64,000 bases of DNA from Allacma fusca. Lineage: Eukaryota; Arthropoda; Collembola; Symphypleona; Sminthuridae. The notes under the pieces were generated by a model. That model saw only the letters and a list, made by a program, of their open reading frames with translations. It had not been told where the DNA came from and did no database searches. The position numbers and the translations under genes are program-made. The stretch lies in NCBI GenBank assembly GCA_947179485.1, contig OX359245.1:34273067-34337066 (forward strand). The letters are read 5' to 3'. Below are positions 23,234-64,000 of this stretch, in pieces; positions within the stretch are counted from its first letter, which is position 1; each line of letters opens with the position of its first letter.

Positions 23234-23697
23234 GAACCCAATCCCAATATAGTTACGCCGCGCTCACTCTGGTGAGGCGCGACGTGACCATTTCCCCTTC
23301 CAATTTCCATCCCCGTCGACCCACGTCATCCCCAACTCCTTCCCAACCTGACCCAATGTTATGTAAGGAAGAGCCATGCTCTTCCTTACCAACTCACACC
23401 ATCTCTACCATTCGCGTTTTTTTTGTTCCCGAGACCAGACCCTCTCTCCCCGCGCTCCACTCTCTTGAACGGATTTCCGGAGTGGAATTAGTTTTTTTAA
23501 CGAGGTTTGAATCCTCAGCTTCCTTTTTTTGTTGGCCTTAAGGTCCCCATATTTGTATTCTTGTATTTGTTATTATTATTCTTATTATTATAATAAAAGA
23601 GCGCTTGTGGCTCACTATTAAAACCACAACTCGGCCGTTGATTCCTGTGGCTCACATGCAATCTCTCCGTCACCTCCCGCATCTCTCACATCCGTAA
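23229..23697 (+). repeat. Gypsy 3' LTR
   Basis: 469 bases, identical to the 5' LTR except for one fewer T in a T run. The pol stop codon (23231-23233) falls in its first five bases. Confidence 0.93.
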
Positions 23698-23701
23698 ATA
23701 C

Positions 23702-25023: not shown

Positions 25024-26976
25024 CCTGAGCTTTCGATATCAAAATTTCGAGTTGTAACATTTCGGTTGTACATATTAATGTCCGTCATTCACGTCACAGC
25101 CTTAGGATACCATTTATTTCTACTTGTTTTAAGTTCAAATAAACTGAAAAACCACGAGATATTTTACTTGTCATATATTTCCGTAAGTGCATGCTTCTGC
25201 GCGACTCTGGGGCTACATTTGACGTATATTTACCAGGTTGTTCCAACATTTTACAGACAAGTGATTGATTTCACCCAGCGATTTCATTGTAAGTAAATTT
25301 AAGGACTACGTGTAATTTTTTGTTGGGTTAGTTGGCTCCAGCTATTTTTTGTATATTCGATATATTGGAATATTCGGTCAATAAGTTTTGAAGCATTAAC
25401 CCTTAAAAACATTCACATTTTGTAATTTATGGTTTTTAAAACTTGAAGCCCAACCTGCTAGTTTGACCAAAGAAAAGACATCATTCAATTTTGTGGAAAA
25501 GCTTTATTATTTTCGACTAATTGTACGAAATATTGATTATGCTCTAATAATCTCTATATTTCTCTTGAATAAATTAATCAGATCTGTCTTTATTCTGAAA
25601 GTCACAGGTTCTTAAATAACATTAACTAGTCCAAGTTTACATTTGAAATATCATTTGTATCTAAATAACAAGAGGAAGTTTCATCAGTCATTTGTGTGTT
25701 ACAAATTTTATAGACCTTAAAACTATAGACTTTGAGCTGGTCTTGAGTCTTGAGTCAGTCCCGAGTTTTATTGCTGTCATGAAACTAGCTATGTGCTGTG
25801 TCAGCGAAGTCCAATGGGTTGCCTCGGTCAAGTTTCCTCTCTCTCTCTTGAAACTCTTGCTGCAAGTGTGTTAACGCTGAATAGACACATTTAGTTCCTC
25901 TTTTTACTTCTTGACATTCATACATGAATACTTTATACATTTGCTCATGATAAATTTCTTACAATTAGTCATTTCCTTAATTCCTAAATGATTTCCTAAA
26001 TAATTTCAACACTTATTATCGATTATCTTAACTTCCCCCGAGAGATATTGCATACGTGTTCACAAAAACGAAGTGATGTGATTACAGGCATGTTATATTT
26101 TATATATTTCAGCTTTGTACGAATCAGAAAAGGTGGAACGGATTTTAAAAAATATGAACAGTATTTTATTTCCTGTTTTTACCTTGCGATCCCAACGTTA
26201 GCGTCAGCTCCTTGTATGTCTTTCATATCTTATTTACCTCCAAACCTGTTTCTGGTGGAAAAACCAATCCAGGACGTGGTTCAAATTTTAAAGGTTTGCA
26301 CTTCAATTCTCCTGAATTTCATGGTAGTCATAACTGCTTACTTATTTATGATGATGCTTGCATTTGGAGTAGCCCTTCCGTCGTTCATGTTTACAAATGG
26401 AGTACTGAACGTTATTGGGTATGTCACTTCACCCTTACTGCGCTAACCCATACAAAACGAATGTGGGGCATATATTTACCACATCTAGATTTAATTTTAT
26501 CATTAAAGAGGATCTTAGTCATATTTTTATTTTGTAGGGCCAGTGAAAACTTCAATTTGAAAGAATTTCATGCGGTTCACATGGCATTGCAAGTATTATT
26601 TACTCGAATCAACGGATTGTTTTCCAGAATCACTTTTCCTTGTCAAGTTTCCCTTATTGTGGTTTCTATAATCTCGTTATTTGGTTTTACTAAATTCGGT
26701 ACTATTCCAGCTAAAATTGTAATGTTTCTATTCGCATGGTCGAATCTAAACTCAGTGATCATTTTCAATGGATTGGCCGGAGGTATAAATGAGAAATCCC
26801 ATCAGGCCATCATATATTGGAGGATTAGAAATAAAAGCCAGTTGTGGAAACGGAGACTAGCAGCACTACAACCACTAAGACTGCGGTGTGGTTCTGCGTT
26901 TTACTACGACAAACTGGTGGCGGTGACCGTTTTGAGAGTCATTATGGAGAACTATATTGATTTGCTGCTTACGTGA
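25024..26976 (+). pseudogene. Gr-like 7-TM chemoreceptor pseudogene, unit A
   Basis: Three exons recognisable by comparison with unit B: 25024-25288, 26113-26418 and 26538-26976, with GTAAGT/CAG and GTATGT/TAG junctions. It lacks the N-terminal part through a deletion of about 612 bases ending at 25023 (relative to unit B). One A is missing in an A run early in exon 2, giving a frameshift. Exon 3 is intact and encodes the last transmembrane segments and the C-terminus. Intron 1 holds a copia solo LTR. Assignment to the insect Gr/Or superfamily rests on length, topology and exon pattern, not on a diagnostic motif. Confidence 0.7.
25522..26011 (-). mobile_element. Copia solo LTR in Gr intron 1, unit A
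   Basis: 490 bases matching the left LTR of the unit C copia element (57139-57626) in the same orientation and with the same left flank (TTTTCGACTAAT). Flanks CTAAT and CTTAT are a near-match 5-base duplication. Removing the LTR and one 5-mer gives exactly the length of the unit B intron at this point (near 36556). It is what remains after recombination between the two LTRs of a full element. Confidence 0.85.
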
Positions 26977-40907: not shown

Positions 40908-41018
40908 TCAATTCAATTTAATTCAATTCAATTTATTAAGGATTCTCTTCGGGCGGCGCCCATATCATCCGTACATTAATCAAAGATTTTAAAAATAATA
41001 AGATAAAGTAAATGTGAG
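40908..41018 (-). mobile_element. LINE 3' end fragment (copy C)
   Basis: Counterpart of 709-819 in unit C, ending at the BEL/Pao LTR at 41019. It matches 48219-48329 of the full LINE. Confidence 0.8.
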
Positions 41019-41499
41019 TGTTCCAATTGGGAACGGGTTCTATATTATAAGAAAACAGGAAAACCAAATAAACCCTTGATTCACCAAATACTAAATTCTC
41101 AAGTCGCCTTGAATTTATTTAAGAGCAAAACAAATTACAAACCGATACACAAAAGGCGAGAAGGGCGAATAATCACTCAGATTTTCTTGTCCCATAATAA
41201 TCCTAGGTACAATTTTCTTAGCCAATAAATTTAGGTCGCTAGGACGCTACGAGAACATTACACATACCGATTACCAATCAATCACAATAAGCACTATCAC
41301 ATGATGAACTTGATGACTCAACAATATTAACAGAATTAATAACTTACTGAGCTATATGGTAATACTAAGACAAAAAATTAGAAACTATAGTAACACAATA
41401 CAATTCAATCACCGCTCACAATCATACGATTCAAATTCTCCACGATGTGAAGAGTCACGTCGACGTGAGTATAGGTGGCTACACTCTACAGTTCTAACA
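41019..41499 (-). repeat. BEL/Pao 3' LTR, copy C
   Basis: 481 bases. It matches the right LTR at the two positions where the unit A left LTR differs. Confidence 0.9.
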
Positions 41500-41577
41500 T
41501 ACTCCCACCATTTGATTTTAATTATTACAAATCAAATATTATAATTAATTACAAATATATTAATGACACTAAACGAA

Positions 41578-46680: not shown

Positions 46681-46736
46681 GATTTTCAAACAAAAAGTGT
46701 TCAAATTAACACTATCCTGCAGGCTGCGCCAATAAA

Positions 46737-47217
46737 TGTTCCAATTGGGAACGGGTTCTATATTATAAGAAAACAGGAAAACCAAATAAACCCTTGATTC
46801 ACCAAATACTAAATTCTCAAGTCGCCTTGAATTTATTTAAGAGCAAAACAAATTACAAACCGATACACAAAAGGCGAGAAGGGCGAATAATCACTCAGAT
46901 TTTCTTGTCCCATAATAATCCTAGGTACAATTTTCTTAGGCAATAAATTTAGGTCGCTAGGACGCTACGAGAACATTACACATACCGATTACCAATCAAT
47001 CACAATAAGCACTATCACATGATGAACTTGATGACTCAACAATATTAACAGAATTAATAACTTACTGAGCTATATGGTAATACTAAGACAAAAAATTAGA
47101 AACTATAGTAACACAATACAATTCAATCACCGCTCACAATCATACGATTCAAATTCTCCACGATGTGAAGAGTCACGTCGACGTGAGTATAGGTGGCTAC
47201 ACTCTACAGTTCTAACA
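46737..47217 (-). repeat. BEL/Pao 5' LTR, copy C
   Basis: 481 bases, starting TGTTAGAAC on the minus strand. Confidence 0.9.
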
Positions 47218-47263
47218 TATGGTTAGTACGTTGACCTGCATAGCTCCATAGACAGACATAGGT
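47218..47263. other. 46-base spacer, copy C
   Basis: Same as 7019-7064 with one substitution. Confidence 0.6.
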
Positions 47264-48218
47264 TGGTAAATCAACAGGCTAGCTGTACCACTGCAAGTAA
47301 TTCGTAATGTTTGCACAAAATATTTTAATTATATTGGAACTGTGGCCAATTGATTGAAATCCGAATTATACGAGGCAAATACTCTTGGCTACGGATCCAA
47401 TTTATTTTTGCAAAATATTTGGGTGGTTTAATAAATCCTATATTATTTTTGACCACTTCCTGTCCGTTGTTTTAAACTTTCGCGGCATTGGCTTGACAAT
47501 TGAAACCTTCGCGGCTCATTTTACTATATAGCTAGTCGATTCATGTACTATGTTATTTCACTATATAGCCAAGCAAGTCGGTGGTATACACAGCAATACG
47601 AAAAGCAAAGCGGGCTGAAACTCTGTCGCAGATTAGAGCTTTTTCAGCTCGCTCCGCTCGCTGTGCTTCTCGTGTATATACCAACTCCTTGCAGCATCCT
47701 GGAAGCTCGCAATATTACGCAATCTTAGGTTATCACTTAAAAGCGCTAAGCATAATTATTATAAACGTTCGATATAAATCATCAAATTTGGATTAAATTA
47801 AGACTGGTAGTGAGAAAAACAACTTCAGGTTCCAGCAATGAAGAATTTGATAATATGAGCATTTTAATGACTGAACCTGGTACACATTAGTGTGGGATTC
47901 TTATTTGGAAAAAGAAAATGAAAGTACTTATTGCAACAGTTTTTATATATAACGTCAGCTATATTCTCAGAATTTGCATTGCTAAAGTTATTTGCTCACT
48001 ATTTTTATAATCACAAGCCTTAACATCCATACATTTGATATTTATATCCCCTGAAAATATCCTTCGGAAGTAAGGATTAATTTGTGGGCACAATGGACTT
48101 CAGTAACTATAGCAAGTGAAAAGTGTTGCGCTATTATGAATTCCTTTCATTTTTCCTATTTTAAATAATCAGTGCGGCCAGTGTCTGAGGCTTCAGTTAC
48201 ACGGTACAACTGAGCTAT
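47264..48218. repeat. R repeat, copy C2
   Basis: Second R copy in unit C, equivalent to A2 at offset 40199. It is preceded by the same 46-base spacer and followed by the full LINE. Confidence 0.85.
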
Positions 48219-48371
48219 TCAATTCAATTTAATTCAATTCAATTTATTAAGGATTCTCTTCGGGCGGCGCCCATATCATCCGTACATTAATCAAAGATTT
48301 TAAAAATAATAAGATAAAGTAAATGTGAGTATACTACGAAGAATGCCAACCTTGGTTGGCTTGTTTTGAGG

Positions 48372-51300
48372 TTAAAGACAGTTAAGAAAATTATTTCTTA
48401 AGCAGCAACTATGAATAAACTTAAACACATCGAAGATGAACTCCTTAGGAGGGTCCTTAAAGAGAGCGAGCAGTGAGCTTTCAGATTTGTAATTAATTAC
48501 ATTATATTTACCTAGATACATTTGCCTTTCTTGGCCGTATATACTGCACCTGGTTATAATATGGAGTATATCATTTTGTTCTTGGAGGTTACACTCTACG
48601 CAAAGGTCGGGGTGTGTAATTTTAAGTTTAACTCTGGAAGCATACAGGGTGGAGGAATTGAGCCTAATATTCGCAATTAGTCTTATATATTTAAGAGGAA
48701 TATTGTGTAGTAGGTACCCAGATGTGGAAAAAAAGGTTTTAATTTGCCTATAAAGAGGGAGTGAGGATGAGGAGGTAATACGATCTAGGTCCTCCTGTAT
48801 AAAAGATTCATGAATCCTTGAGCTGAGGTATGGGAAGAAGCCTTCAAGGTATTCAGCGGACTGGAACTCCCACACCGCCGCGCACCCATGTCTGTACAGA
48901 ACGCTGCGGATAAATACTGGCCATACCATTTTATTTCCCTGGAGGGTGTCCCTGCGGCTAAGAAGGCGTAAGCGTTCGTAGCAGATTTTAGGCAGTCTTG
49001 TTTGGGGCATTAGTTGTAATTTGAACCAAAATCTAAGGGCCCATATGATCACCCTGTAAAAGACCTTGACGCTGCCTGTTTCTATTCTAAGAGCGTAAGA
49101 TGGAGTGCTTTGAGGCAACCAGAGCAAATTTCTTAAAAACTGATTTTGTACTATCTCCAATTCAGAGGCTACATTTAGCGCCCAGATCTCTGATGCATAC
49201 GTCATTGTCGGAATGACTATTGAATTTAAGAGTTTTATTCTGGATTCCCACGAGTCTGTTCTAGATGCACTAAGGGTTTTTAACACTGGACCTACTGTAG
49301 CTAGGGACTTGCGCTTCATTTCCTTTGCCGCTGAGCGGAAGGCCCCAAAAGCAGTAAATTTTGCTCCCAGATAAATGTATTCTGCGACAACTTCAATAAG
49401 GTTTCCTTTTAGGTTCCATTTCGATTGTTGGAGCAATTTACCTCCATTACGAAAAATAATAATCTTAGTTTTGGATAAGTTGATTGATAGGTAATTCATA
49501 TCACAGTAATTATCCAGTGCATCTATTTTTGATTGGAGGCTCAGCCTTGAGTCCGCAAGAGTGACATTGTCGTCGGCCAGGAGGAGATGGTTGACCGAGT
49601 TTGAGTCACCTAGCCCCACTGCTGAGGCACCCTTCAGAACCAAGAATCTATCCAGATCCGAGATGTATAAGGCGAAGAGCAGGGGCTGAGAATGTCTCCT
49701 TGCAGGACGCCCTGGGAAACATCGAAGGCTTGGGTATGGGTGTTGCCTACCCTGATCATTATGCCTGCGTTTTCATAGAGACACTTAATTACACCAATAA
49801 ATTTACTACTGACCCCCAGACTATCAAGCTTCATCCATAGCAGGGAGTGGTTAAGGGAATCGAAAGCTCTGGCCAGGTCAACAAATAACGCAAATAATTT
49901 GCCCCCAGGCATTCTTAGCCTTATCTGGATAATGGTTAGTAGGGTAAAAATTTGGTCGGCACAACTCCGGTGTTTTCTAAACCCTGCCTGCGTTTTCGGC
50001 AAGATATTGTTAAGTTCGGACCAAGCATACAGCCTGTTGTAAAGTATCCTGGTGAATACTTTCGTAATCGTATTGATAAGGGCGATTCCTCGGTAATTAC
50101 TTGGTAGATGTTTATCGCCCTTCTTGTGTAACATAAAGATTTTCGTGGGGTAGTGCCGTGAGTTAGAATTGTGTTGAAAGGGGTTAAGAGCTTGTGTGTT
50201 AGCTCAGGGGTGGAATGTTTCCAGAATTCGTTTGGAATGTTGTCTAAGCCTGGGGACTTATTATTTTTCAGGGCCGTAAGGGCTTCTTGTAGTTCCTCCA
50301 GAGTAATATTCGAGTCTAGCGTATCATTTTGCCTGAAAAATATTTGCTGTGGGCATTCAATCGGCGGTTTTGGGGGCATTACTTCTGAGTAAAATATCTG
50401 CCATTCGTTCAGTGAGATTGGGCTATAATTACTTGGGCGGGATTTAAGTGAGTTAAATGTTTTCCAAAATACCGATATTGACTTTGTATTCCGCATCCTA
50501 ATTTTTATACGCTCTGCATGGTCTTTTTTCTTTGATTTGAGTAAACATTCATAGAGTTTTCTCGCCTCGTGGTACTCCCTTAATAGGACCACAGAATAAA
50601 GGCCTTGTCTTAGGGATTTTAATTTCTTGGTGACACCTCGGTGCAATTTTCGGCATTCTTGGTCATACCATGGTTTGTCCCTACCCTGATTACCACCCAT
50701 CAAGATTCTACGTTGCATTCCGCAGCTCTGTGCCGTCATCACTACAGCCTCAATTATGGCACTGTTAAACGTGTCAGGGTCCTCCCCATCGGAGATAGTA
50801 CATAAGTTTTCATTCAGCATGACCCTATATTCTTCTGAGAGGCCTTGCCACCTAATTACCTTCTTTAAACAAACCGAGTTTGACATAACTAGGTGCCCTG
50901 ATTTAATCAAGTCTAAACATATAGGTGAGTGTGGAGATAGACAAATATTTAGGGTTTTTAGATCGTGTATTATCGGAAGACAGACGGAGTTTGCCCAGCA
51001 TAAATCAATTACGCTGTTCCCGAAGGGGGATGAGAACGTAAACTCTGCTGGGTTATCGCTCGGGCAGCGACCATTTAGTAGAATAAAATTTCTGTCGGAT
51101 AAGTAATTAAACAAAGTGGCCCCCCTATTGTTTACGATGCCGTCCAAACTCCGTCTTTCCTTCTGTATACTTGGGTGTGAGTGATCCGGGAAAAAATTAC
51201 GTCCCCCAACTCTTGCGTTTGAGTCTCCAAAAACAATTATATTTTCCCCTGGGAATTCCATTGCAATATCGTCCACTATATCTGTTAATTTCAGAATAAT

Positions 51301-51669
51301 GTAATTATTTTCAACTCCTGGTTTAGCATATATGAATAATACAATAATATTCTCACGAGTGATCGCATGTTCTAAGACAAAAGTTGATAAAAAGTCATAT
51401 GTGTGAACGAATTTGATTACTTTAAAGATTTTACTGACAAATGTAATTATGCCCCCTCTCGGTCTCCCTAGTTTGTGCCTCCTGCACGCTGGATTATTAA
51501 AAATAGTAAAATTGTCAAAATTATTAAGATGTAAATTAAAATCTAAATCCTCATACCAGGTCTCTGTTAGACAAAATATCTCAGCATTTACAAATATATT
51601 TTTTTCCGTCGCGCTTAAATTATAAAAGTTTGAGATACCGTTGCAATTCCAGTAAATTATTTTGTTCAA
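48372..51669 (-). pseudogene. LINE ORF2, two frameshifts, copy C
   Basis: Same three-piece ORF2 as copy A: pieces at 49936-51669, 49634-50134 and 48372-49643. The frameshifts are at the equivalent sites (near 50144 and 49679). The endonuclease SPH in place of SDH is also shared. Differences include Asn for Ile in the endonuclease segment and Leu for Pro near the C-terminus. Confidence 0.8.
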
Positions 51670-51702
51670 GTTGATTTGTCGTGAAATGGGGCCGCCTGTG
51701 TC

Positions 51703-52638
51703 CTATGTGATTAACATTTGACTTTCCTGCGTTCTATTTAGTTGACTGTGCACATCAGGTGAAGTGTAGTTATCCGTTCGTCGACTCATTCGAGGGGTTG
51801 ACTCCGTAACAATACCGTTAATAGCTTCGTAAAATTTAGATCCAATTTGTATTTTCCTCCCAATCCATTTCGGGTTGTCTCCATTGCTACGGGCTTGCTT
51901 AAATAAGTTTCGCAGTGCGAACTGATTTGTGGCTTCGGTTTTGGTGAGGTCTTCCCTGATTTTGAGGCCTTCGTTACTAAGCTCCTTAAACCTTCTAACC
52001 AGTTCCCTGGCCTTGGATACTGTAGTGAGTTTGACCGTGATTGGACGCTTATTTTGTCCTCCTTGGTTTGACCGTTTTACCATTCTGTGGACGATGTGAA
52101 AGTCTTCGCTTTTTATTTGGATATTTTGGTTTCCTAGTTTTGTCTTCAGGCAGTATATGATGTTATCGTTCGTTTCTCCATTCTTTTCTTCCAGGCCTGT
52201 GATGACTACATTTTTCTGTCTCAGAAGCAGGTGGAGTGTCTGATTGTCCGTCTGGAGTTGCTCGATTACTTTCTCCTGGTATTCTAATTGAGACTGCATT
52301 ACCGAGCACCTGGATTCCAGTTCCTACACTTTCTTGTCTATGTTTGCTGTGATGTCCTCTTTTGCCTCTCTGATTTCCTTGGAGATCTCCTTGTTCGTCT
52401 CTTCTCTGTTCGTTTTTAGCTCCTGTTTAAAGGCCTGCAATAATTGAGCCATATCCATTGTCTCGAGGCCACCGGTGTTCTCTAAAGCTGAGCTAGGTGT
52501 AGTATCTTGGCGAGGATTTTTTGTTGGTGTGGGGGACTCCTCGTTGGAATCTTCTACGTTTATTTTTCTTTTGACCGGGAATGATGAAAACTCCGTGATT
52601 TTTAATTGTTTAGACTTTGGGGAGTGTTCTATTGGCAT
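51703..52638 (-). pseudogene. LINE ORF1 with internal stop, copy C
   Basis: Same frame and same in-frame TAG (52324-52326) as copy A, with one noted difference (Arg for Thr before the stop). Coiled-coil then RRM-like region; otherwise as copy A. Confidence 0.7.
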
Positions 52639-53382
52639 CTCCGGAAAGCGCTCCTTTAGTGTCCCGAGTCAAGGTTGAGGTCTCGTTCTAGGGAATAGAA
52701 GCAGAATCGCGTGCCAGTAACTCTGAGATTTCCAAGAGAACAGACCTGGGAACGGAGATTGTGTATTTACATTTTATTAAATAAGAAAAAGAAAAACTCG
52801 CCTGTGTGAGGGCCCGGTGAACACCTGCAGCGTTTGCTATTAATTGCCAAAAATGAATTGCTACTGAATAGCCTGGTGTTACCGGGCAAGGTCTGGTAAT
52901 TGAACACTCGTCATGCAAGGTTTCAGGCTTATGTCATTGGTGTGAGTTGGGCTTCCGTATGTACCTCCACTTACTCGGGTGCTTAGGCTTGGGTAGATGT
53001 TGTTCAGATTTAGCAAAATCGGGAAATAGTGCAAACTACTAATCTTCTGAGAAATTCCCTCCCAGGGGGAAATATTTGAGTTGTTTACAGTGGTTTTCGT
53101 ATGCCGAGCATTCACTTTTTTGAAATTTTAAAGTCGAAAAGTTTAAAGAAAGAAGAAAATGTATGTGTTCGAGTCTCACAACTGAGCTATACACAAATTA
53201 TAATAACATAAAAAATCATTTAATCAGCATGTTGTGCTGATCCACTAAGGGTTGAAGCACCATACAGCGTTGCAACAATAAGATTTAATAACAATGTTGG
53301 TATTAAATTGATCAAGCGATTAGTTAAATTCCACGTGTATAGCCAAATATTGAGTTTGGGAGAGAACTTTAGTGGGCTGGAG

Positions 53383-53895
53383 CAGAGATGCGCAAAGGAA
53401 ATGGCCTTCCTTCAAACCTTCGAAGGCGAAAATACAGTAAAAAGTTCCCCTTCAGCATGTCCTACTGTAGAATGAAGCCCTCTAAAAAATCTGCCTTCCT
53501 TCACCCTTCCTTCCAAAATATATACATTCATTTTTGCCTTCAGCCTTCTTCTAAAAATAGCCTTCCTTCAATTTTACAACTATAACCCGCTTAAAAACGT
53601 TTGGCACCAGCAGGATTCAGTGCCGTGAAGAGAGCGGGCAAAACGTCATTGCATATGCTATGCTTTCACGTTATAGATATTTCGTGTACCTGGAAGGCTT
53701 CACAGCCTGAGAGGGCTAATATTTAGGAAGCCTTCCTTCACAATCCTTCCTTGCAAGTTTTTGTGAAGGCTTCCTTCAGCCTTCAGAAAAAATTATCCCC
53801 ATCTTTCCATTTCTTCTGCAACGGTAAGAAAGTTACCTTTCCGCCTTCAATGAAGCCTTCTTGGAAGGCTAGCCTTCTAAGGCTGCGCATCTCTG
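53383..53895. mobile_element. hAT-like MITE type 1 (CCTTC-rich), copy C
   Basis: 513-base copy with the same ends and the same GGCTGGAG duplication (53375-53382 and 53896-53903). Confidence 0.85.
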
Positions 53896-54023
53896 GGCTG
53901 GAGCGTTGTACCATAATTTTTTGATGATGAATTGCCAACGAGCTATATGAAACGAATTGCCCCTGTGAAGCGCAGGGCTTTTACTAATTAGTACTTATGG
54001 TCCTGTGGAACTTCAGTTTGTTT

Positions 54024-55021
54024 TAGGGCTACTCACAACTCAAGTTATTTGAACTTGAAGTTGTAATTGAAATTGAATTTTCTACTCAATTTCAGCCTAG
54101 TAGTTGTATTTCACCATTTGCAAATCAATTTTTTAATTGACAGTCAATTACCAGAAACCAACGTATAGCTTCAATATTTGAAGTTGACAATTACAAGTTG
54201 TAATATTTGTACAAATTGAAGTTGAATTGAAATTGACTTATAGTTGATTTAAATTGAGTCGGACAATTTAACGTGCCATTAAATACTTCTACTTAATATC
54301 AAAATAAAATAAAAAAATTGTATATAACATGCTACTTTAGTCCTTTTCACACGTAAAATTACAGGAATCTGCACTTAATATCACTAAACTAAAACTAAGT
54401 TTCCCCGAGAAGCTCTTTAGAAATAGCCATTGTTTTTTTGCTTCAAAAACACCAAAATGGTTTTCAAACTTCAGACAAATCTAAACTCCGTCGGTGAATG
54501 TCTAATGCTTGTTTATGTCAAAGGATTTCTTTTTCGTTTTTAGTTGACTGCTTGAACCATCTTCTGAGTCTCCAGTACCAACTAAATCAACGATTTTCTC
54601 CCTTTTCTCGCTCATATTATTAACGTTGATTAAACCCATGCATTATTTTAACGTCATTGTAGATTATGTGTGAACGAGATTTCTGGAGGTTTGAGTTGCC
54701 AACAGAGTGGCGTAGTATTTATTTTTCATTAAAAATACCGATGGATTCGCAAAATTGACGACAAATTTCTCCAACGTGCATATTTAATTTGTTCAGAAAT
54801 TGCCAATTACTCAACTTCAACTGTCAACTATTTGTACTGTAGCAACTTGAAGTTGAATTGACTATGCTTCTCAAATGAAAAGCTTTATTCAACTAATATT
54901 TTGTTTCAAATTGAAGTTGACTTCAATTTACAATTTAATTTTTTAAGTAATATGAAGTTGACTTGAAGTTTTAATTGAAATTGCAACTTGCAACTACTAC
55001 TTGAAGTTATGAGGAGCCCTA
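54024..55021. mobile_element. hAT-like MITE type 2 (AAGTTGA-rich), copy C
   Basis: 998-base copy with the same ends and GTTTGTTT duplication (54016-54023 and 55022-55029). Confidence 0.82.
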
Positions 55022-55029
55022 GTTTGTTT

Positions 55030-56640
55030 GCACGAGTTTGTTTGGAAAAGAATTCGATTTAAGCGCATCATTATCTGGAACAAGTCCTGGTCTCTTTTGT
55101 AGTGGTAATTATATCGAATAGTACATACGGGATTTACAACCCTACTAAAACATAGATAAGTCAAATTAAATTCAACTTTTATTTGTTGTTAGTAGGTCTG
55201 CGAAATAATTTTCAAATGTTTAAGTAACACAAAATGTATTGTCCAGGGAAATTTGTTTACTGTTTAGTTCAACGTATGGTTGATCCAAGCTAGGATATTA
55301 ATTACGAACTAAATATACGTAGATATGATTTGATGGATACATATAAAATATCCAACTGCAACTAGTTAAAACGTTGACCAAGTTTGTACTAAAATATGTA
55401 CAGCGAACTTCCTTTTTAGTGGTTCCTTTGGGATGACAAAATGCCTGCCAATATACGAGGACGCCATTATATCCTACAACTATATAATGTAAATGTAATA
55501 GGGAATATTTAAACATGCCAATATAAAGGGAATGATGTCTAAGCGGAAACCGCTGGATAGGAAATTCCCTGTAAGCAATTTAATCTTAAAAAACACACCC
55601 CGGCGATAATAAAATAAAATAATGAAATCAATGGAATTTCACTCAATTCTCTAAATATCTCTCCTTATAGGTTTTTTATTACGTGTAAACAAATTCCTCT
55701 GATTTCTACTTTTCCGATTTTTTGGTGTCTAAAATTTGCCTAACATGCACTAAAATTTAACTCAGCTAGGACAAAATGAAGCGACAAATGCCATTGTAAA
55801 AAGGTCCAAAGATGCTTGAATGAATTAAACGGTCTTCTTCGACATAAATGGGGTTCTGACGGGGATCAGATGTTTGTGGGAAGATTTTTCACAGGTAATA
55901 AATATTTTTTGCAAGGAAAAGCAACTGAAGTAACCTCTCTGAGTAACATTACTCAGATCTATTGCTAAGAAATCCTGACAAAGTTATCTTTCTCCAATAC
56001 GAAACAACTAACATTGAAGTAAAAACAACAAAAACATCAGCTAAAACCCGAATATCATTTCCGTTCTTTCATAATTACGAAATCGAATGACCTTCAAACC
56101 ATGGAATTTGTAAAGTGTAAGGAATCGTAAGGAATCGTAGTGTAAGAAAGTCGGCAAAGTTCCTGCACCCAGAAATTGAAATTTTGGTATTTATATTATT
56201 TATTTATTTTAATATAATTGTAAGTAGTCACCATCGACCGAACCACGAACTTCCTGGCGTTCCTGGCCATGAGACGTTTCGGGTGTTTTGGGTACGGAAA
56301 GGTGAAATTAGCAACAGAGATGGCGCTTGTATTTCAGCTATCATAATCCGGCTCGGATATTTATGACAAGAGATTTCTGTCAGAAAATAGATACCTCAAT
56401 AAATATATTATATTCGTTGTCAGTACGAAACCCTTTAACAACACACATTTCTTTGCAACAATTGATTACAAAAACTGCCAGATTCAAAAGTTTCACTTTC
56501 CCCCAACTGCAAAGGCGGTTTGCGTATAAATTCGTGCAGCGGAAGGACTTTTAAATTATATTAGAATGGATTCCATGCAAACAATTTAAATTTGAAAAAT
56601 AATTGAGCATAAGTATATTATAAGTAGCATTTCAGACTTC
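55030..56640 (+). other. Upstream flank of Gr-like gene, unit C
   Basis: Non-coding flank, uninterrupted at the site where unit A has the gypsy insertion (near 55318). It keeps the TAAGGAATCG repeat (two units near 56118). Confidence 0.5.
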
Positions 56641-56905
56641 CCTGAGCTTTCGATATCAAAATTTCGAGTTGTAACATTTCGGTTGTACATATTAATGTCC
56701 GTCATTCACGTCACAGCCTTAGGATACCATTTATTTCTACTTGTTTTGAGTTCAAATAAACTGAAAAACCACGAGATATTTTACTTGTCATATATTTCCG
56801 TAAGTGCATGCTTCTGCGCGACTCTGGGGCTACATTTGACGTATATTTACCAGGTTGTTCCAACATTTTACAGACAAGTGATTGAATTCACCCAGCGATT
56901 TCATT
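56641..56905 (+). pseudogene. Gr-like exon 1 remnant, unit C
   Basis: 3' part of exon 1, ending at a GTAAGT donor. It has the same 5' deletion breakpoint as unit A (CAGAC|TTCCCTGAGC). Intron 1 is then occupied by the copia element. Exons 2 and 3, if present, lie beyond the window. Residue differences from A are minimal (for example Glu for Asp near the end). Confidence 0.75.
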
Positions 56906-57138
56906 GTAAGTAAATTTAAGGACTACGTGTAATTTTTTGTTGGGTTAGTTGGCTCCAGCTATTTTTTGTATATTCGATATATTGGAATATTCGGTCAATA
57001 AGTTTTGAAGCATTAACCCTTAAAAACATTCACATTTTGTAATTTATGGTTTTTAAAACTTGAAGCCCAACCTGCTAGTTTGACCAAAGAAAAGACATCA
57101 TTCAATTTTGTGGAAAAGCTTTATTATTTTCGACTAAT

Positions 57139-57626
57139 TGTACGAAATATTGATTATGCTCTAATAATCTCTATATTTCTCTTGAATAAATTAATCAGAT
57201 CTGTCTTTATTCTGACAGTCACAGGTTCTTAAATAACATTAACTAGTCCAAGTTTACATTTGAAATATCATTTGTATCTAAATAACAAGAGGAAGTTTCA
57301 TCAGTCATTTGTGTGTTACAAATTTTATAGACCTTAAAACTATAGACTTTGAGCTGGTCTTGAGTCTTGAGTCAGTCCCGAGTTTTATTGCTGTCATGAA
57401 ACTAGCTATGTGCTGTGTCAGCGAAGTCCAATGGGTTGCCTCGGTCAAGTTTCCTCTCTCTCTTGAAACTCTTGCTGCAAGTGTGTTAACGCTGAGTAGA
57501 CACATTTAGTTCCTCTTTTTACTTCATGACATTCATACATGAATACTTTATACATTTGCTCATGATAAATTTCTTACAATTAGTCATTTCCTTAATTCCT
57601 AAATGATTTCCTAAATAATTTCAACA
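57139..57626 (-). repeat. Copia 3' LTR
   Basis: 488 bases; matches 63770-64000 and the unit A solo LTR apart from a few substitutions and a 2-base difference in a CT run. Confidence 0.9.
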
Positions 57627-57661: not shown

Positions 57662-59365
57662 TTACATATATAAAAAATTATTTCGAATCTTTTGGTTGTA
57701 GAAATTGTTCTCCACGATGTCTTGGAGGGGAATTGCTTCTTCCTTCTTTTCTCCATCATTTGCTGCTGCATTTTGTCCTTGTCTTTGCGACTTGAACTTT
57801 TTTATGCATCTTCCAGCTGCAATCAAAAAAGCAATGCTTCCACATATGCATGCACTGATAAATAGACAAACTTCTGTTGTTGTCCATGAACTTTTGGAGT
57901 ATTGAAAAACAGACAAGTTATGCACTTCTCTTTCAATCTCAAGTTCGCTGTTTTTCCAATCTTCATCAATCTCGGCTGTGAGATTCTTCCAATTGATGTT
58001 CGGATTGAGATGGTAATTGATCTGCTCAATTAACAACGGATCTTCTTTTTCTCGGTAAATGACCTTTAGAATTGATCCTTTATATTCTACGCCATTCAGA
58101 GTGAACGTAGCCGATAGGGGCAATGTGAACACATGGAGTGGACACAAAATACTTCTCCTTCCAATTATATAGCTGCTTCCTGGACAGTGTATATAATATA
58201 GGTTGTTGAAGAGTTTAACCTGAATAAACTCCTTCTCATCTGCTTCTCTGGAGATTTTGCATCTCTCAGTTCTGTAGTAAGTTCCGTCTTCAAATATAGA
58301 ACTGTTCGTACAATTCAATGACACGTCTAGTGACAATTGTCTAATTTCCTCCTGGAATTGTGTATTGTAGACACAATCTTCCTCTGCTGATATGGTCGCT
58401 AAAATAGGACCGTTATACTTCAGTCTGCATGTAACATTATTCCTTTTCGTCATAATGTCAAATGGATCAGCTTTCACACGAACAAGGCTCCTATTAACTA
58501 TTGGAATGGTGAAGTCCAATGTTATAGCCTTTTTATTCTCGTCCATTACACAACTTTGAAAAGTCCCATATTCTGCAGGGCAGTCTTCTCCACATGGTAA
58601 TGTAATGTTAAGGTAATTGAACAACTCAGTGGACAATTCCTTTTTCCTCCAGGTTTTCGTCGTAAGTTGTAAAATTCTTTTACCCTCTAACAGTCGTCCT
58701 GTGAGGTAGGAGATTACAAACTGTAACTCGATCACCTTTTGCTTGAATGACATCAGATCAGCTTCCAATGTATTCAGTCTGGAGGTTACTTTTCGTATCT
58801 CCATTTGAAATGTCTTCATCCTTTTGTTAGCTGCAAAGACATCTCGTTCTAATTCATCTAGAGCTGCCAGTAGCTCTGATTGACGGGTCTCCAACTGGTA
58901 AGTTTTTGTCAGAGCAAAGGTTCCTATGCCCAAACCTGCGCTAGCCAGTACCGCCACAATTATGAAACCTGCAATAAATATTAATCTCTTCTCTCTTTTG
59001 TAGAGAGTTTTCTCGCAGGGACAAATCCTTTGAATGTTCCTAGAGAAAAGTTCATCATAGGTTTCTTCACACTGTTTCCTCAGTGCTTCCGCCATGTTTG
59101 CGTCCGTACCTTCTATAGGTAGGAATGTGCAAGGCGAGATGAGATTTATCTTCATAGTAAAAGCTTTGAAGCCAATTACAGCCGGGTCATACGTTTTCCT
59201 CCAAAGCAGTGTGCTTCCATTACTTGCTCCTCCGAGTGTCAGTAATGACAAAAAGAGTGATAAGGTCCAAATCAGTTTTGGCCTTTTAGGATCAACAATT
59301 ACACTGCATAAAGCTCTGCGCTTTACAGGTTCTTCTTTTACTTCGGGTGGAAATTGCATTCCCAT
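57662..59365 (-). other. env: Env-like class I fusion glycoprotein region of copia ORF
   Basis: Residues about 1078-1644 of the pol-env frame. Two Met codons (1078 and 1080) precede the signal-peptide-like segment, so a subgenomic or spliced mRNA could start here. Alternatively signal peptidase could free the glycoprotein from the polyprotein at the membrane. The layout (short N-terminal subunit, furin-like site, fusion-peptide-like segment, HR, membrane anchor) is shared by baculovirus F, errantivirus Env and other class I fusion proteins. I cannot assign it to one of these families by eye. If functional it would mediate membrane fusion. Confidence 0.75.
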
Positions 59366-62300
59366 AATTGATCTTTTCTTCAAGAAGTTGACTCTTCCTA
59401 CAGCTTTAGTCAGGATGTCCGCTGGTTGGACAATATCCGGCAAATGCTTTAGAGCAACTTGCTTGGTCTCTACCAGATCTCTGATAAAATGGTGTCGGAT
59501 GTCAATGTGTTTGGATTTTTCATGGAACTCCGGGTTGTTGGCCAACTTCATAGCACTTTGGCTATCCGTAAGTATAGAAATAGGACTGTTTGCTACTCCG
59601 AAGTCTTCGTAAATCTTCCGTATCCATACAGCATCCTTTCCTACTTGAGCTAACGACACATATTCACTTTCCGTTGAGGAGAGTGAAATACATGTCTGTC
59701 GTTTGCTCAGCCACGAAACTGGACTCCCATTAAAGGTGAATAAGTTTCCTGATTTGGACTTCCTAGAGTTCTTGTCTGAACCATAATCTGCATCAACATA
59801 AGCTTGAATGACATCATCTTCTGATTGCCAATAAAATATTCCGAGACTTTGCGTCCCTTTTAGGTATCTCAGAATTTTCTTTTCAGCTTCATAGTGTTGT
59901 CTCCCACATCCAGCAAAAAATCTCGCGAGGTAATGAACAGCATATGTGATGTCCGGCCTCGTGCATCTTGCTAGGTATAGCAGAGCACCAATGAGTTCTT
60001 GAAAATTGTAGGCAGTGTCTGATGGACTTACTGCGGCCAACTGTAGACCTTGGTCCATCGAGATGTCAACAGTTTTGCACTGTTCCATGCCAAATCTTCT
60101 CAATAGCTCTTCAACATATGATTCCTGGTGAATAAAAATTCCGTCCTCATTCTTGATAATTTCTATACCAAGAAATTTCTTCAGGGGTTGAATGGTGAGC
60201 TTAAAGCTGTCCTTCAAGTCAGCAATTATAGCCTCCAATTCCTCTTTGGACTGTCCTATAACAAGTCCGTCATCTACATATATAGTCATATATATAGGAT
60301 GTCCGTCATGATCCTTCTTAAATAAGCAAGGATCGCTGTCCATGGGATAAAATTCCATGCTGGATAACTTTTCCTGTAAAGTTTTTTTCCAGTTTCTGGG
60401 GGCCTGTTTCAATCCATATAGTCCTTTGAGGAGTTTACAGACCATTCCAGGTTCTGCATTGTAACCTTCTGGCTGCTCCATATATATTTCTTCATCTAAA
60501 GGACTGTTTAGGAATGCGGTTGCTACATCAAATTGCATGATGTGCATATTCCGAGCTGCTGCGATGGATAGTAGAATCCTGACTTTCTCATATCTGCTGA
60601 CTGGAGCAAATGTTTCTTGAAAGTCAATACCTTCTTTTTGACTATATCCTTTCGCAACGAGTCTTGCTTTAAATCTTGGTCCGTCAGGTCCATTCTTCAG
60701 TTTATAGACCCACATATTCTTTATGAGTCTTTGCTGTGGAGTTCTTTTTACAAGAGCCCACGTTTCTTGCTCTGCAAGACTACAAACTTCATCGTCCATA
60801 GCCTCCTTCCATTCGTTCTTGAATTTGGAATTAATTGCTTCTTTGTAGGTTCGTGGTTCACTGATTTGCTCAGCGAGAAAACCTGCTTGATACTTTCCCG
60901 TCTGGGTAGTTACTCTCCCTGAACGTCGTACCGTTGGTTCTGGAACTGGATCCTGTTCCATTTCTTCATCAGATTTCTCAAACATCTCTGGTTCTGTGTC
61001 GGACCATGACACAAACCGTTGTCTGGGAGTAGAACCCTCGTCGTCTGAGTTCGTTGGTGTGAATAAATCCCTTTCGGGGGAATTATCACGGCTTGAGGTA
61101 GGACTTAAGAATACCTGTTCTGTGGTATCTGACTTACTTTTGCTCGTACTAGGTAAGTTTGCCTTACTTTGTACCGGAGGACTTGATTTCTTCAATATAC
61201 TCCTGGGCAATGTGTCAATCTGTTTGGCGGGACAAATGACTTGCTCATGTACGGTAACCTCGTCCTCAGGAATAATACTCATAGAGTTATTATTAACGAT
61301 ACCCATGGTGTCTTCATCAAAAGTTACGTGCTTTGCCTGCTCTATGTACTTGTTGTTCTCTGGTACCCATAGTGTATAATTCTTGTTGAGAGAATCATAT
61401 CCTACTAGAATAGTCTCCAGGGCTGCGTCCTTCCACTTTTGGTGCCCATGCATGATTTTGGCGTACGCAGTACAACCAAACGTCCGTACATGTCTTAAGG
61501 ATGGCTTCTTCTTGAACACCTTTTCCCAAGGTGTGATCTCCGTGTTGTTGGAGTTCAAAGTCCGGTTGAGCATATAGCATGCTACTCCAACTGCATCCTC
61601 CCAAAATTTGTCACCTAACTTACTTTGCGTAAGCATAGTGCGTGCTGCGTCTTGAATTGTGCGTATATCACGCTCAATAAATCCATTTGCTTGTGGGGTG
61701 TGCGGTGCGTTGAGCCCATGTGGAATTCCTTTCTCCGAAAAGAATTGCTTCAGAGTTTGATTCAAAAACTCGGTTCCGTTATCGGAACGGAAAATCTTCA
61801 CTGTATTTCCAGTCTGGTTACTCATAAAGTTAACCATATCCATGACATTTCTTGCCGTCTCGTCCTTCGTCCTCTGAAAGTATCCGTGTCGAAAGTATGA
61901 TTCCTCATCTTTAATCAATAGACAGTATTTGCTACCGTTATTTGATGGTGTGAGTCCATATATCAAATCTCCTTGTAAAGCTTCACCAGTTTTGTATACC
62001 CCAGTCTTTGCGACTTCTGGGTAAGACTGCTTGACTGCTTTTCCAATCTTGCATATTGAACATGGTGCGTCATCATTTTGCATTTCTTCTAGGCCATACA
62101 CTGCTCCCTTGTCCTTAGTTTTCTTCAAAAAGCCGCAGTTAATATGTCCCAATCTTGAGTGCCAGTTAACTTGCTTTTTGCAAGCAAATGCATTGTTAAC
62201 TGTAGGTCTGAACCTCATAATCTGAAGTCCATTCTTCATGTAGGCTTGAATGTCCGGTACTCCATCCTTGAAGAAAATAAATTCATTTGTCCCTTCCTTT

Positions 62301-62596
62301 TCTATTCTGTACCCTTTTTTAAGGAGTGCATTTTCAGAAAGTAAGTTCGCTGCTCCAGGGATGTATAGAACGTTTCCTATCTCGATGGTCTCCCAATTGC
62401 CTCGTTTGAGAGCAAGTACCTTCACCTTTCCTATTCCAAGGGCCTGCATGTATGATTTATTCGCCAGTCCAATGTTATGTGGTTCCGAATATTTTGCATA
62501 TTCCGAGAACCATTCTAATCTTCCACAGTAGTGGGCATCCGCTCCAGTCGTTAACCCAATCATCCGAGTGGTCTCCGGCTGCATATGCAGTTCCAC
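57662..62596 (-). CDS. pol-env: Copia Pol fused in frame to Env-like glycoprotein
   Basis: 1644 uninterrupted codons. The retropepsin triad region is broken by the frameshift at the start. Integrase has H146, H151, C179, C182 and D210, D272, E308. RT has D690 and YVDD (773-776); RNase H has D935, E976 and D1011. After RNase H (about 1075) comes a signal-peptide-like segment (about 1107-1123). Then follow a short subunit, the basic cleavage site KREKR (1200-1204), a Gly/Ala-rich hydrophobic segment (1205-1229), a heptad region (about 1232-1310), an ectodomain with many Cys and sequons at 1330, 1368, 1387, 1428, 1431, 1538 and 1560, a membrane anchor (about 1576-1597) and a 47-residue tail. The codon 62596 is only the first ATG after the frameshift. 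Confidence 0.88.
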   Translation of the reverse strand: MELHMQPETTRMIGLTTGADAHYCGRLEWFSEYAKYSEPHNIGLANKSYMQALGIGKVKVLALKRGNWETIEIGNVLYIPGAANLLSENALLKKGYRIEKEGTNEFIFFKDGVPDIQAYMKNGLQIMRFRPTVNNAFACKKQVNWHSRLGHINCGFLKKTKDKGAVYGLEEMQNDDAPCSICKIGKAVKQSYPEVAKTGVYKTGEALQGDLIYGLTPSNNGSKYCLLIKDEESYFRHGYFQRTKDETARNVMDMVNFMSNQTGNTVKIFRSDNGTEFLNQTLKQFFSEKGIPHGLNAPHTPQANGFIERDIRTIQDAARTMLTQSKLGDKFWEDAVGVACYMLNRTLNSNNTEITPWEKVFKKKPSLRHVRTFGCTAYAKIMHGHQKWKDAALETILVGYDSLNKNYTLWVPENNKYIEQAKHVTFDEDTMGIVNNNSMSIIPEDEVTVHEQVICPAKQIDTLPRSILKKSSPPVQSKANLPSTSKSKSDTTEQVFLSPTSSRDNSPERDLFTPTNSDDEGSTPRQRFVSWSDTEPEMFEKSDEEMEQDPVPEPTVRRSGRVTTQTGKYQAGFLAEQISEPRTYKEAINSKFKNEWKEAMDDEVCSLAEQETWALVKRTPQQRLIKNMWVYKLKNGPDGPRFKARLVAKGYSQKEGIDFQETFAPVSRYEKVRILLSIAAARNMHIMQFDVATAFLNSPLDEEIYMEQPEGYNAEPGMVCKLLKGLYGLKQAPRNWKKTLQEKLSSMEFYPMDSDPCLFKKDHDGHPIYMTIYVDDGLVIGQSKEELEAIIADLKDSFKLTIQPLKKFLGIEIIKNEDGIFIHQESYVEELLRRFGMEQCKTVDISMDQGLQLAAVSPSDTAYNFQELIGALLYLARCTRPDITYAVHYLARFFAGCGRQHYEAEKKILRYLKGTQSLGIFYWQSEDDVIQAYVDADYGSDKNSRKSKSGNLFTFNGSPVSWLSKRQTCISLSSTESEYVSLAQVGKDAVWIRKIYEDFGVANSPISILTDSQSAMKLANNPEFHEKSKHIDIRHHFIRDLVETKQVALKHLPDIVQPADILTKAVGRVNFLKKRSIMGMQFPPEVKEEPVKRRALCSVIVDPKRPKLIWTLSLFLSLLTLGGASNGSTLLWRKTYDPAVIGFKAFTMKINLISPCTFLPIEGTDANMAEALRKQCEETYDELFSRNIQRICPCEKTLYKREKRLIFIAGFIIVAVLASAGLGIGTFALTKTYQLETRQSELLAALDELERDVFAANKRMKTFQMEIRKVTSRLNTLEADLMSFKQKVIELQFVISYLTGRLLEGKRILQLTTKTWRKKELSTELFNYLNITLPCGEDCPAEYGTFQSCVMDENKKAITLDFTIPIVNRSLVRVKADPFDIMTKRNNVTCRLKYNGPILATISAEEDCVYNTQFQEEIRQLSLDVSLNCTNSSIFEDGTYYRTERCKISREADEKEFIQVKLFNNLYYIHCPGSSYIIGRRSILCPLHVFTLPLSATFTLNGVEYKGSILKVIYREKEDPLLIEQINYHLNPNINWKNLTAEIDEDWKNSELEIEREVHNLSVFQYSKSSWTTTEVCLFISACICGSIAFLIAAGRCIKKFKSQRQGQNAAANDGEKKEEAIPLQDIVENNFYNQKIRNNFLYM

Positions 62597-63382
62597 CAGA
62601 TTTGAGTTGACTTGTGGTTGTCGTCATCTTTGACTCGTTGTTCTTTTTCTTCTTTTCTGAACATTCCCGAGCCCAATGCCCTTGCTTTGCGAAAATATGG
62701 CATTTAGTCTTTTTCTTCAATTCAGCAATTTCCTCTTTGGTCAATTTGGGTTTCTTCCCATTTTGCTTCTGTGCTGAGAAAGCTTTTCCACTTTCACTGG
62801 TTTTCGCAAGACTTCCTGACTCTTGATCCGCGAGTTCCCAGGTCTTCAGTCTTGACAATAGAAGTGCAGTAGTTTGCCTACTGACCTCCACCGATCTCCA
62901 GGTTTCTCGAAAATTCCTGAATTTCTCTGCCATGAGGCTAGAGATTACGCGTGCAACAATTGATTCGTCGTCCATCTTTGATCCTATGGAGTTCAGCTGT
63001 GCTGCGAGGTTTTGCACCTCACACATGCACTTGACTGGAGAGCTTGTTTGCTCTCTCCGGAAGTACTCTCATACATAATACGAAGTTTTTCCCAAACCTG
63101 ATTAGCAGTGGTACATCCTGACACACGATCAACTTCCGTGTCTGACATTGAGAGGTACATGCTGGTGAGAGCCTCCGAATTTCCTTGGTCCCACTTGTCT
63201 TGGGTATCTCCAGAGGTAGATGGTCTTGTCTTGGACCCATCCACTATATCCGTTATCTTGTGTGCAGTAAAAACACTTACTAACCTGGTTTTCCAAATGC
63301 GGAAGTTGTCTCCGTTGAGCTTCGTTATAGATCCAGTATCAAACCTCCGGGTCACATAATCGTTGTTCGTAGTTGTAGACAT
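62475..63382 (-). pseudogene. gag: Copia Gag, frameshifted
   Basis: Copia-type Gag (UBN2-like, KLNGDNFRIWK near the start). The likely start is MSTTTNN at 63382, leaving codons upstream to 63547 as leader. A net one-base shift near 63035 moves the frame by -1 into the second half (63026-62475). The zinc knuckle reads C-H-I-F-x4-H-x4-C, so the second Cys is Phe. The second frame ends just after the protease region begins, and pol lies +1 to it. The first gag half and pol are in the same frame, which suggests one ancestral gag-pol frame damaged by two indels. Confidence 0.75.
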
Positions 63383-63769
63383 CGTGATTGTCAACTGTAA
63401 AAACTTGAAGAAACACTGTATGAAGTACACACACTCTTCTGTTGTCACAGAAATTTTCAACTTAATCCGACGTCGGGATTTAAAGTTATGAATAAAATAA
63501 TGTTGCACTATTTCACTCGGGGTAAAGTGATTCTGAACTTTATTCACTGAAAGTTATCACTTTTAAATCTTTGTTGTACATCAACAACAAAAAATGAAAC
63601 TTGATATTCTTCTCTGTTGAAAAACTATCGCACTTGAGTTTCACTCTTGAGTTTTTGAAGAACACCTCTGTGGAGTCTTAAAATTCACTGAAATTTCCAC
63701 GTCGGGAAAAACAAAACTTCCTTTTCACTTTTGCAGTGAGTTTGGTTTCAGCTATCGTGTTGTATAACG
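63383..63769 (-). other. Copia 5' leader
   Basis: About 390 bases between the 5' LTR and the likely gag start. The frame is open from 63547 but the residues there do not look like Gag. No convincing primer-binding site was recognised beside the LTR. Confidence 0.5.
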
Positions 63770-64000
63770 TGTATGAAATATTGATTATGCTCTAATAATC
63801 TCTATATTTCTCTTGAATAAATTAATCAGATCTGTCTTTATTCTGAAAGTCACAGGTTCTTAAATAACATTAACTAGTCCAAGTTTACATTTGAAATATC
63901 ATTTGTATCTAAATAACAAGAGGAAGTTTCATCAGTCATTTGTGTGTTACAAATTTTATAGACCTTAAAACTATAGACTTTGAGCTGGTCTTGAGTCTTG
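63770..64000 (-). repeat. Copia 5' LTR (partial)
   Basis: First 231 bases on the plus strand of the second LTR, starting TGTATGAAATATTG. It differs from the other LTR at the fifth base and at one site near 63846. The remainder is outside the window. Confidence 0.88.

What the first reader, a model, noticed from the sequence alone, without database searches (positions are those of the whole stretch)
57662..62596. A Ty1/copia element whose Pol frame runs into a complete Env-like glycoprotein
One 1644-codon frame has copia integrase-RT-RNase H followed, with no stop, by a signal peptide, KREKR cleavage site, hydrophobic Gly/Ala-rich segment directly after it, heptad repeats, a glycosylated Cys-containing ectodomain, membrane anchor and tail. 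Env-like ORFs are known in plant Sireviruses (Pseudoviridae) and in gypsy-type errantiviruses. An animal copia with a class I-like Env would be a new retrovirus-like lineage. This is my best candidate for an undescribed system.
Basis: partly seen in the sequence, partly recalled or inferred. Interest (0 to 1): 0.92.

Follow-up and report, generated by a model that had tools for sequence, protein, structure and literature searches.

The report
Animal copia retrotransposons with viral envelope proteins
In a springtail genome, a large group of copia jumping genes carries, fused in one reading frame to its copying enzymes, a protein that looks like the membrane-fusion proteins of enveloped viruses, so these elements look like retroviruses that arose from copia.

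Summary
Window 57662-62596 (minus) is one open 1644-codon frame: copia integrase, RT and RNase H, then a 567-aa glycoprotein with signal-like segment, KREKR site, hydrophobic segment, long predicted helix, Cys-containing ectodomain and membrane anchor. The host is the springtail Allacma fusca, judged by assembly size and chromosome lengths. It is no chance fusion: at least 123 of 150 scored copia RT hits in this genome have such an Env downstream (1 lacks it, 26 unsettled). Of 27 read loci with Env, 26 keep the Pol frame open into it. RT and Env identities co-vary (r 0.97, 16 loci). Env dN/dS is 0.06-0.11 in eight close pairs, like RT. Seven metagenomic relatives exist; two show copia RNase H in the same frame. 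Two low-confidence AlphaFold models match paramyxo-/pneumovirus F in 50 of 50 and 49 of 50 listed Foldseek rows. Several copies have frames near 2146 aa and identical LTRs, so they moved recently. The window copy is damaged in gag/protease. Best reading: a copia lineage that captured a class I, F-type fusion protein and became retrovirus-like. Fusion and infectivity are inferred. Ten paper searches showed no animal copia with env.

The parts
57139..57626 (-). 3' LTR of the element
   Evidence: Aligns to the 5' LTR over 492 columns, 3 mismatches and 1 gap
63770..64000 (-). 5' LTR, cut by the window end; continues to window-equivalent 64261 in L029
63756..63769 (-). Probable primer binding region CGTTATACAACACG just inside the 5' LTR; similar in two other families
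   Evidence: relatives; assignment is inference
62993..63547 (-). Gag, first part of a broken reading (copia gag, PF14223 E 2.3e-13)
62475..63026 (-). Gag, second part in another frame, with a zinc knuckle that lacks its second Cys; reaches the protease region
   Evidence: PF14223 E 0.0026, below its cut-off; zinc knuckle and protease region read by eye
57662..62596 (-). Open Pol-Env frame, 1644 codons
61694..61990 (-). Integrase core (rve)
   Evidence: coordinates
60056..60766 (-). Reverse transcriptase (RVT_2)
   Evidence: E 5.2e-62; coordinates
59399..60055 (-). RNase H and end of Pol (no Pfam model matched; read by motif and by alignment to relatives)
57665..59365 (-). Env-like glycoprotein, residues 1078-1644 (P0008)
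59222..59278 (-). Hydrophobic N segment, candidate internal signal sequence
   Evidence: Hydropathy 1.41 here, 1.32-2.55 in the 16 Envs
58985..58999 (-). KREKR, furin-type cleavage site
   Evidence: Basic site in 16 of 16 Envs
58913..58984 (-). Hydrophobic Gly/Ala-rich segment after the cleavage site, candidate fusion peptide
   Evidence: Hydropathy 2.59; 2.17-2.87 in 16 Envs
58646..58855 (-). Long helix, candidate heptad repeat 1
   Evidence: AlphaFold2 helix 171-240
58079..58564 (-). Beta-rich Cys-containing ectodomain with invariant cysteines
57914..58039 (-). C-terminal helices, candidate heptad repeat 2
   Evidence: low confidence
57818..57874 (-). Membrane anchor
   Evidence: hydropathy 2.53
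25522..26011 (-). Solo LTR at the same site in the other copy of a segmental duplication; same flanks on both sides

Best explanation
A lineage of Ty1/copia (Pseudoviridae) retrotransposons in a springtail captured once, long ago, a gene for a class I fusion glycoprotein of the F type (closest in predicted shape to F of paramyxo-/pneumoviruses and to glycoproteins of arthropod mononega-like viruses) and keeps it as the C-terminal part of one Gag-Pol-Env frame. Most likely working: the full-length RNA is translated as a polyprotein (or a spliced RNA uses the same frame); the internal hydrophobic segment sends the Env part into the secretory pathway; a furin-type protease cuts at the basic site and frees a fusion peptide; the trimer sits on the cell membrane or on budding particles and fuses them with another cell, giving cell-to-cell, germ-line or horizontal passage. 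Shown here: anatomy, conservation, selection, shared history with RT, recent transposition of some copies. Inferred: polyprotein processing, trimer, fusion, particle release and infection.
For: Frame and domains. Seven relatives, 28-47% identical in A1; P0004 and P0006 show copia RNase H in the same frame, the other five are reading frames on short contigs without Pol. 27 of 28 sampled RT loci have Env downstream; 123 of 150 scored RT hits overall (70, 46, 4); these include 71 of 71 RT hits with an open frame of 1600 aa or more. Basic cleavage site, N segment, post-cleavage hydrophobic segment and anchor in 16 of 16. Cys 258, 262, 272, 331, 352, 369 and 394 invariant in 17 aligned sequences. 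dN/dS of Env 0.064-0.108 in eight close pairs (0.148 in a ninth with 3 differences), RT 0.008-0.107 in nine. RT and Env trees of 16 loci share the two deep clades and the division into families; r 0.967 over 120 non-independent pairs. Fold. Profile-sequence hits to hMPV and Nipah F with the fusion-peptide/HR1 region in register, from E 0.012. Recent activity: LTRs 100% identical in 6 of 7 chosen copies, 1 mismatch in 451 in the seventh; 27 of 150 RT hits in a frame of 2144-2148 aa. Frame open into Env in 26 of 27 loci.
Confidence: 0.8

Rival explanations
1. The C-terminal part is a membrane-anchored accessory domain (for example, tethering Gag-Pol or particles to membranes inside the cell) and does not mediate fusion or infection.
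For: It lies in the Pol frame in 26 of 27 loci with Env, which would tie Gag-Pol to a membrane; fold models are low-confidence.
Against: Basic cleavage site with a hydrophobic segment directly behind it in 16 of 16, N-glycosylation sites and conserved cysteines, F-type fold matches from two query sequences.
Confidence: 0.14
2. Env was captured several times by different copia families, so the shared arrangement is convergent.
For: Env diverges more than RT (minimum identity 23% against 39%), and two weakly supported groupings differ between the trees.
Against: The deep clades and families agree and identities co-vary (r 0.967, 120 non-independent pairs); the 17 aligned Envs share 26 invariant columns.
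Confidence: 0.05
3. A chance fusion, assembly artefact or misread frame in this one copy.
For: The window copy is damaged upstream.
Against: Many copies on several chromosomes, independent metagenomic contigs, purifying selection, solo LTR and exact flanks at the duplicated site.
Confidence: 0.01

Closest known systems
Sirevirus (Pseudoviridae, plants)
   Same: copia-type Pol with a putative envelope gene downstream (PMC8515867, whole text read)
   Different: [quoted passage not shown] here the host is an arthropod and Env is in the Pol frame. Sequences were not compared.
Errantivirus (Metaviridae, insects)
   Same: Arthropod LTR retrotransposon with a captured envelope gene; that it is class I with a furin-type site is recalled (an RxxR site in moth LTR-element env is named in a figure legend of PMC6563192)
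   Different: Here integrase precedes RT, in Metaviridae it follows RNase H (PMC12440569 passages); no Baculo_F in the Pfam listings shown. Errantivirus env is thought to come from baculovirus.
Anakin and the Pao element with chuvirus glycoprotein in mosquitoes
   Same: Capture of an RNA-virus glycoprotein by an arthropod retrotransposon (PMC10084718 passages)
   Different: Another Pol superfamily and another glycoprotein (recalled); one search reports no clear capture of Jingchuvirales glycoproteins by Gypsy or Copia.
Paramyxovirus/pneumovirus F and glycoproteins of arthropod arli-/lispiviruses
   Same: Predicted fold and order of elements: cleavage site, fusion peptide, long helix, beta domain, C-terminal helices, anchor
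   Different: About 8-14% identity in the Foldseek matches; here part of a retroelement reading frame.

Membership tests
Pseudoviridae (Ty1/copia) | copia-type RT (RVT_2) with integrase N-terminal to RT | tested here: met
   rve 203-301 before RVT_2 611-847, E 5.2e-62
Pseudoviridae (Ty1/copia) | copia-type Gag | tested here: met
   PF14223 E 2.3e-13 in 62993-63547; gag is broken in this copy
Pseudoviridae (Ty1/copia) | LTRs and target-site duplication | tested here: met
   LTR pairs in window and 7 other copies; 5-bp duplications in 6 of 7 by reading the printed flanks, two of them after a one-base shift of an LTR edge; window copy has only a 4-of-5 match CTAAT/CTTAT
Pseudoviridae (Ty1/copia) | No extracellular phase | not testable with these tools
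   Stated in PMC8515867; the present elements may depart from it
Genus Sirevirus | Plant host | tested here: not met
   Host is Allacma fusca by assembly size and chromosome lengths
[quoted passage not shown]
   Env lies in the Pol frame in 26 of 27 read loci with Env
Genus Sirevirus | Sirevirus clade in a Pol tree | not tested
   No reference sequences at hand
Errantivirus (Metaviridae) | Pol order RT-RNase H-integrase | tested here: not met
   Integrase precedes RT
Errantivirus (Metaviridae) | Baculovirus F-type Env | tested here: inconclusive
   No Baculo_F in the Pfam listings shown (25 of 61 families shown); an NPV envelope fusion protein is rank 10 in the viral fold search
Class I viral fusion glycoprotein, F type | Basic cleavage site followed by a hydrophobic segment, and a C-terminal anchor | tested here: met
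   16 of 16
Class I viral fusion glycoprotein, F type | F-type fold | tested here: met
   Foldseek 50 of 50 listed rows of 362 (E from 4.1e-8) and 49 of 50 of 250, judged by entry titles; models of low confidence, so a provisional pass
Class I viral fusion glycoprotein, F type | Trimer and membrane fusion activity | not testable with these tools
   Needs the bench

The most novel reading that the evidence does not exclude
A retrovirus-like lineage that arose within copia in animals: enveloped particles with an F-type fusion protein taken from a negative-strand RNA virus, made as one Gag-Pol-Env polyprotein with an internal signal sequence, and recently spreading in a springtail genome.
Probability: 0.45. 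Interest if true: 0.95.

Novelty: new variant of a known kind. Interest (0 to 1): 0.88.

Why it matters
The ICTV profile of Pseudoviridae says that its members have no extracellular phase and names env for the plant sireviruses only, though its table allows that virions 'might be enveloped'. A large, selected and recently active copia lineage with a fusion protein in an animal would add a further independent origin of retrovirus-like elements, in an LTR superfamily for which the papers that I searched show none in animals. Keeping Env in the Pol frame poses a direct question: how is one polyprotein split between cytosol and secretory pathway? With many young copies in a sequenced species, both are testable.

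Tried and rejected
Chance fusion or single-copy artefact: rejected. Independent captures: disfavoured by tree agreement, with two weak conflicts. Separate Env start or strong shared splice acceptor in the linker: not found in 14 loci; the linker of L023 has no Met, and the best AG sites differ between families; splicing is not excluded. Sequence search for a named origin of Env: three protein searches gave the same 7 proteins; the viral-contig scan had 122 pattern matches, none confirmed; the RT piece against PDB gave no hit at E 0.01. Baculo_F was not in the Pfam listings shown; a family not listed by VIA-align is not excluded. Half-tRNA priming: the region CGTTAT..CA.CACG behind the 5' LTR is alike in three families, without the TGG of a tRNA 3' end, while the L040 family has TGGTAGC; the genome search for a matching tRNA did not complete. 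Pol phylogeny with reference copia clades: not made, no references at hand. Literature: searches (open-licence PMC only). In listings, abstract starts and the passages opened I saw no animal copia with env; many listed papers were not opened, among them PMC5408684 (rotifer elements with extra ORFs) and PMC5248466 (Aedes). Opened: PMC8515867 whole; passages of PMC10427803, PMC12440569, PMC8672886, PMC6563192, PMC6955108, PMC10084718, PMC8220671; PMC3587641 and PMC8556966 hold no 'env' or 'envelope' as whole words.

Full report
Observation. One search gives one open frame, window 57662-62596 minus, 1644 codons. Pfam places Pol_BBD, gag_pre-integrs, rve, SH3 and RVT_2 over their cut-offs in residues 17-847. 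Residues 1078-1644 (P0008) have no Pfam match over a cut-off. The element is bounded by LTRs, 57139-57626 and 63770 to window-equivalent 64261, 98.6% identical over 492 columns. Upstream of the frame, gag lies in two overlapping frames (PF14223) and the zinc knuckle lacks a cysteine (by eye), so this copy is not intact.

Host. The window is C1:34273067-34337066 of an assembly of 392,743,791 bases in 91 contigs. C1, C8, C12 and C10 measure 81.89, 75.61, 58.81 and 66.08 Mb, as do chromosomes 1, 2, 4 and 3 of the springtail Allacma fusca (392.8 Mb in 95 scaffolds; PMC10427803, passages).

Site history. The window holds a segmental duplication (1-15121 with 40200-55322, 99.8%; 23698-26011 with 55315-57626, 99.7%). 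At the matching site of the other copy stands a solo LTR, 25522-26011, with the same flanks on both sides as the provirus. The bases next to the LTRs read CTAAT and CTTAT, a 4-of-5 match to a 5-bp duplication.

Relatives. A search of 5.8 billion proteins with P0008 gave 7 relatives (the 8000 candidates sharing most words were scored), 28-47% identical in alignment A1. P0004 (873 aa) and P0006 (592 aa) begin in copia RT/RNase H and run into the same Env; the other five are shorter frames on contigs of 1.7-3.6 kb that show no Pol, and P0006 breaks off within Env. Two further searches with alignments gave the same 7. They come from metagenome sources, organisms unknown.

The same arrangement across the genome. 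RVT_2 finds 150 scored hits (of 221 candidates) in the genome. Of 28 RT loci that I read (the 8 best, 20 chosen for variety), 27 have Env downstream by tblastn; L014 has none, nor in a further 3 kb. A search with P0008 gives 79 Env matches (77 scored of 279 candidates), 72 of them 0-3500 bp behind an RT hit on the same strand, most often 817 or 691 bp; 7 are not. So 70 of 150 RT hits are followed by such an Env. A search with the Env of L016 (81 scored of 293 candidates) adds 46, reading adds 4 and three short fetches add 3: 123 of 150. One is without Env and 26 are not settled; one of the 26, L074, gave only 24-residue matches. The 71 RT hits in open frames of 1600 aa or more are all among the 123. 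Sixteen loci with full pieces (window included) fall into nine RT clusters at 70% identity, down to 39% RT and 23% Env identity. Loci left out of these sixteen were decayed, cut short or close copies: L001-L009, L014, L015, L024, L028.

Shared history and selection. RT and Env trees of these 16 loci agree on the two deep clades and on the families in the ten-locus clade. They differ, without strong support, in the six-locus clade (L023 with L025 in RT, L025 with L026 in Env) and in the order within the window family; the tool warns of long branches. Pairwise identities correlate with r 0.967 over 120 pairs, which are not independent. Close pairs give Env dN/dS of 0.064-0.108 (eight pairs) and 0.148 (one pair, 3 differences), RT 0.008-0.107 (nine pairs). 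Listed Env pairs at dS above 2 show 0.17-0.41 and were set aside as saturated. So Env is under purifying selection of the same order as RT.

Reading frame. In 26 of 27 read loci with Env the frame runs open from RT or RNase H into Env; L009, decayed, is the exception. In one representative for each of nine clusters the linker is open over 655 codons, while 15 of 18 readings in the other two frames hold stops. There is no Met common to the linkers and no shared strong acceptor in 14 loci. Translation as Gag-Pol-Env is the simplest reading; splicing within the same frame is not excluded. In the L011/L020 families the linker is about 120 codons longer.

Anatomy of Env. In 16 of 16 Envs a hydrophobic N segment (1.32-2.55, weakest in the window family), a basic site (R-x-[KR]-R or KREKR), a hydrophobic segment behind it (2.17-2.87) and a C-terminal anchor (1.80-3.15) are present. 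In 17 aligned sequences 26 columns are invariant, seven of them Cys. AlphaFold2 of P0008 with 8 rows gives mean pLDDT 57.3 and the order strand, helix, post-cleavage helix, long helix 171-240, beta domain, C-terminal helices, anchor. With the most distant relative P0007 as query, and the same 8 rows, the order is the same, with the long helix in pieces, pLDDT 58.2.

Recent activity. In 7 copies chosen from long open frames of three families, LTR pairs are 100% identical in 6 (395-728 bp) and differ by 1 of 451 in the seventh; 5-bp target duplications can be read in 6 of 7. 27 of 150 RT hits lie in frames of 2144-2148 aa. The choice favours young copies.

Mechanism. Shown: conserved Pol-Env frame, selection, co-inheritance, anatomy, recent transposition. 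Inferred: entry into the secretory pathway at the internal hydrophobic segment, furin-type cleavage, trimer, fusion, passage between cells. The rival that Env only tethers particles inside the cell remains open.

Comparison. PMC8515867 (whole text) describes Pseudoviridae as without extracellular phase and names env for plant sireviruses. PMC12440569 (passages) names Errantivirus and Anakin as envelope captures. PMC10084718 (passages) found no clear capture of Jingchuvirales glycoproteins by Gypsy or Copia. PMC11952523 (abstract start in listings) reports fly LTR retrotransposons that infect the germ line without Env. None of the ten paper searches showed me an animal copia with env; most subscription papers are not in that library. 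I therefore file it as a new variant of a known kind: an env-carrying LTR element, in a superfamily and with a reading-frame architecture not seen in what I could search.

Noticed in passing
1-15121 / 40200-55322; 23698-26011 / 55315-57626: Segmental duplication at 99.7-99.8% identity, interrupted in the first copy by a gypsy insertion at 15117-23698.
   Followed up: partly
15117-23698: Young Ty3/gypsy element (LTRs 15117-15587 and 23229-23698, 99.8%) whose Pol frame 18605-23233 has about 500 residues, Pro/Thr-rich, after the last Pfam match at residue 1037.
   Followed up: partly
820-7020 and 41019-47219: LTR element (483-nt repeats) with one 1735-codon frame, duplicated with the segment; looks like BEL/Pao (recalled, not tested).
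   Followed up: no
26212-26976, 29427-29942, 36757-37515: Repeated hydrophobic reading frame of about 170-254 codons in a local cluster; no Pfam match for the two copies tested. It reminds me of chemoreceptors (recalled).
   Followed up: partly
L011, L013: RT pieces differ at dS 0.117 but Env pieces only at 0.005: recent recombination or conversion between copies.
   Followed up: no
L011, L012, L013, L020: Lys-rich stretch of about 120 extra residues between RNase H and Env; its relatives were not searched apart.
   Followed up: no
G000 C8:50.66-51.20 Mb, C1:22.60-23.05 Mb, C9:1.19-1.23 Mb: Of 18 Env hits of the L010 family (bits 545-550), 16 lie in these three short regions. The one copy whose flanks were read (C10:63519345, outside them) has 5' and 3' flanks alike to each other (86-88%), as in a tandem repeat. 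Possible targeting to satellite DNA.
   Followed up: no
63756-63769 and L030, L042: Region behind the 5' LTR is alike in three families and lacks TGG; perhaps half-tRNA priming, while L040 has a TGG start.
   Followed up: partly
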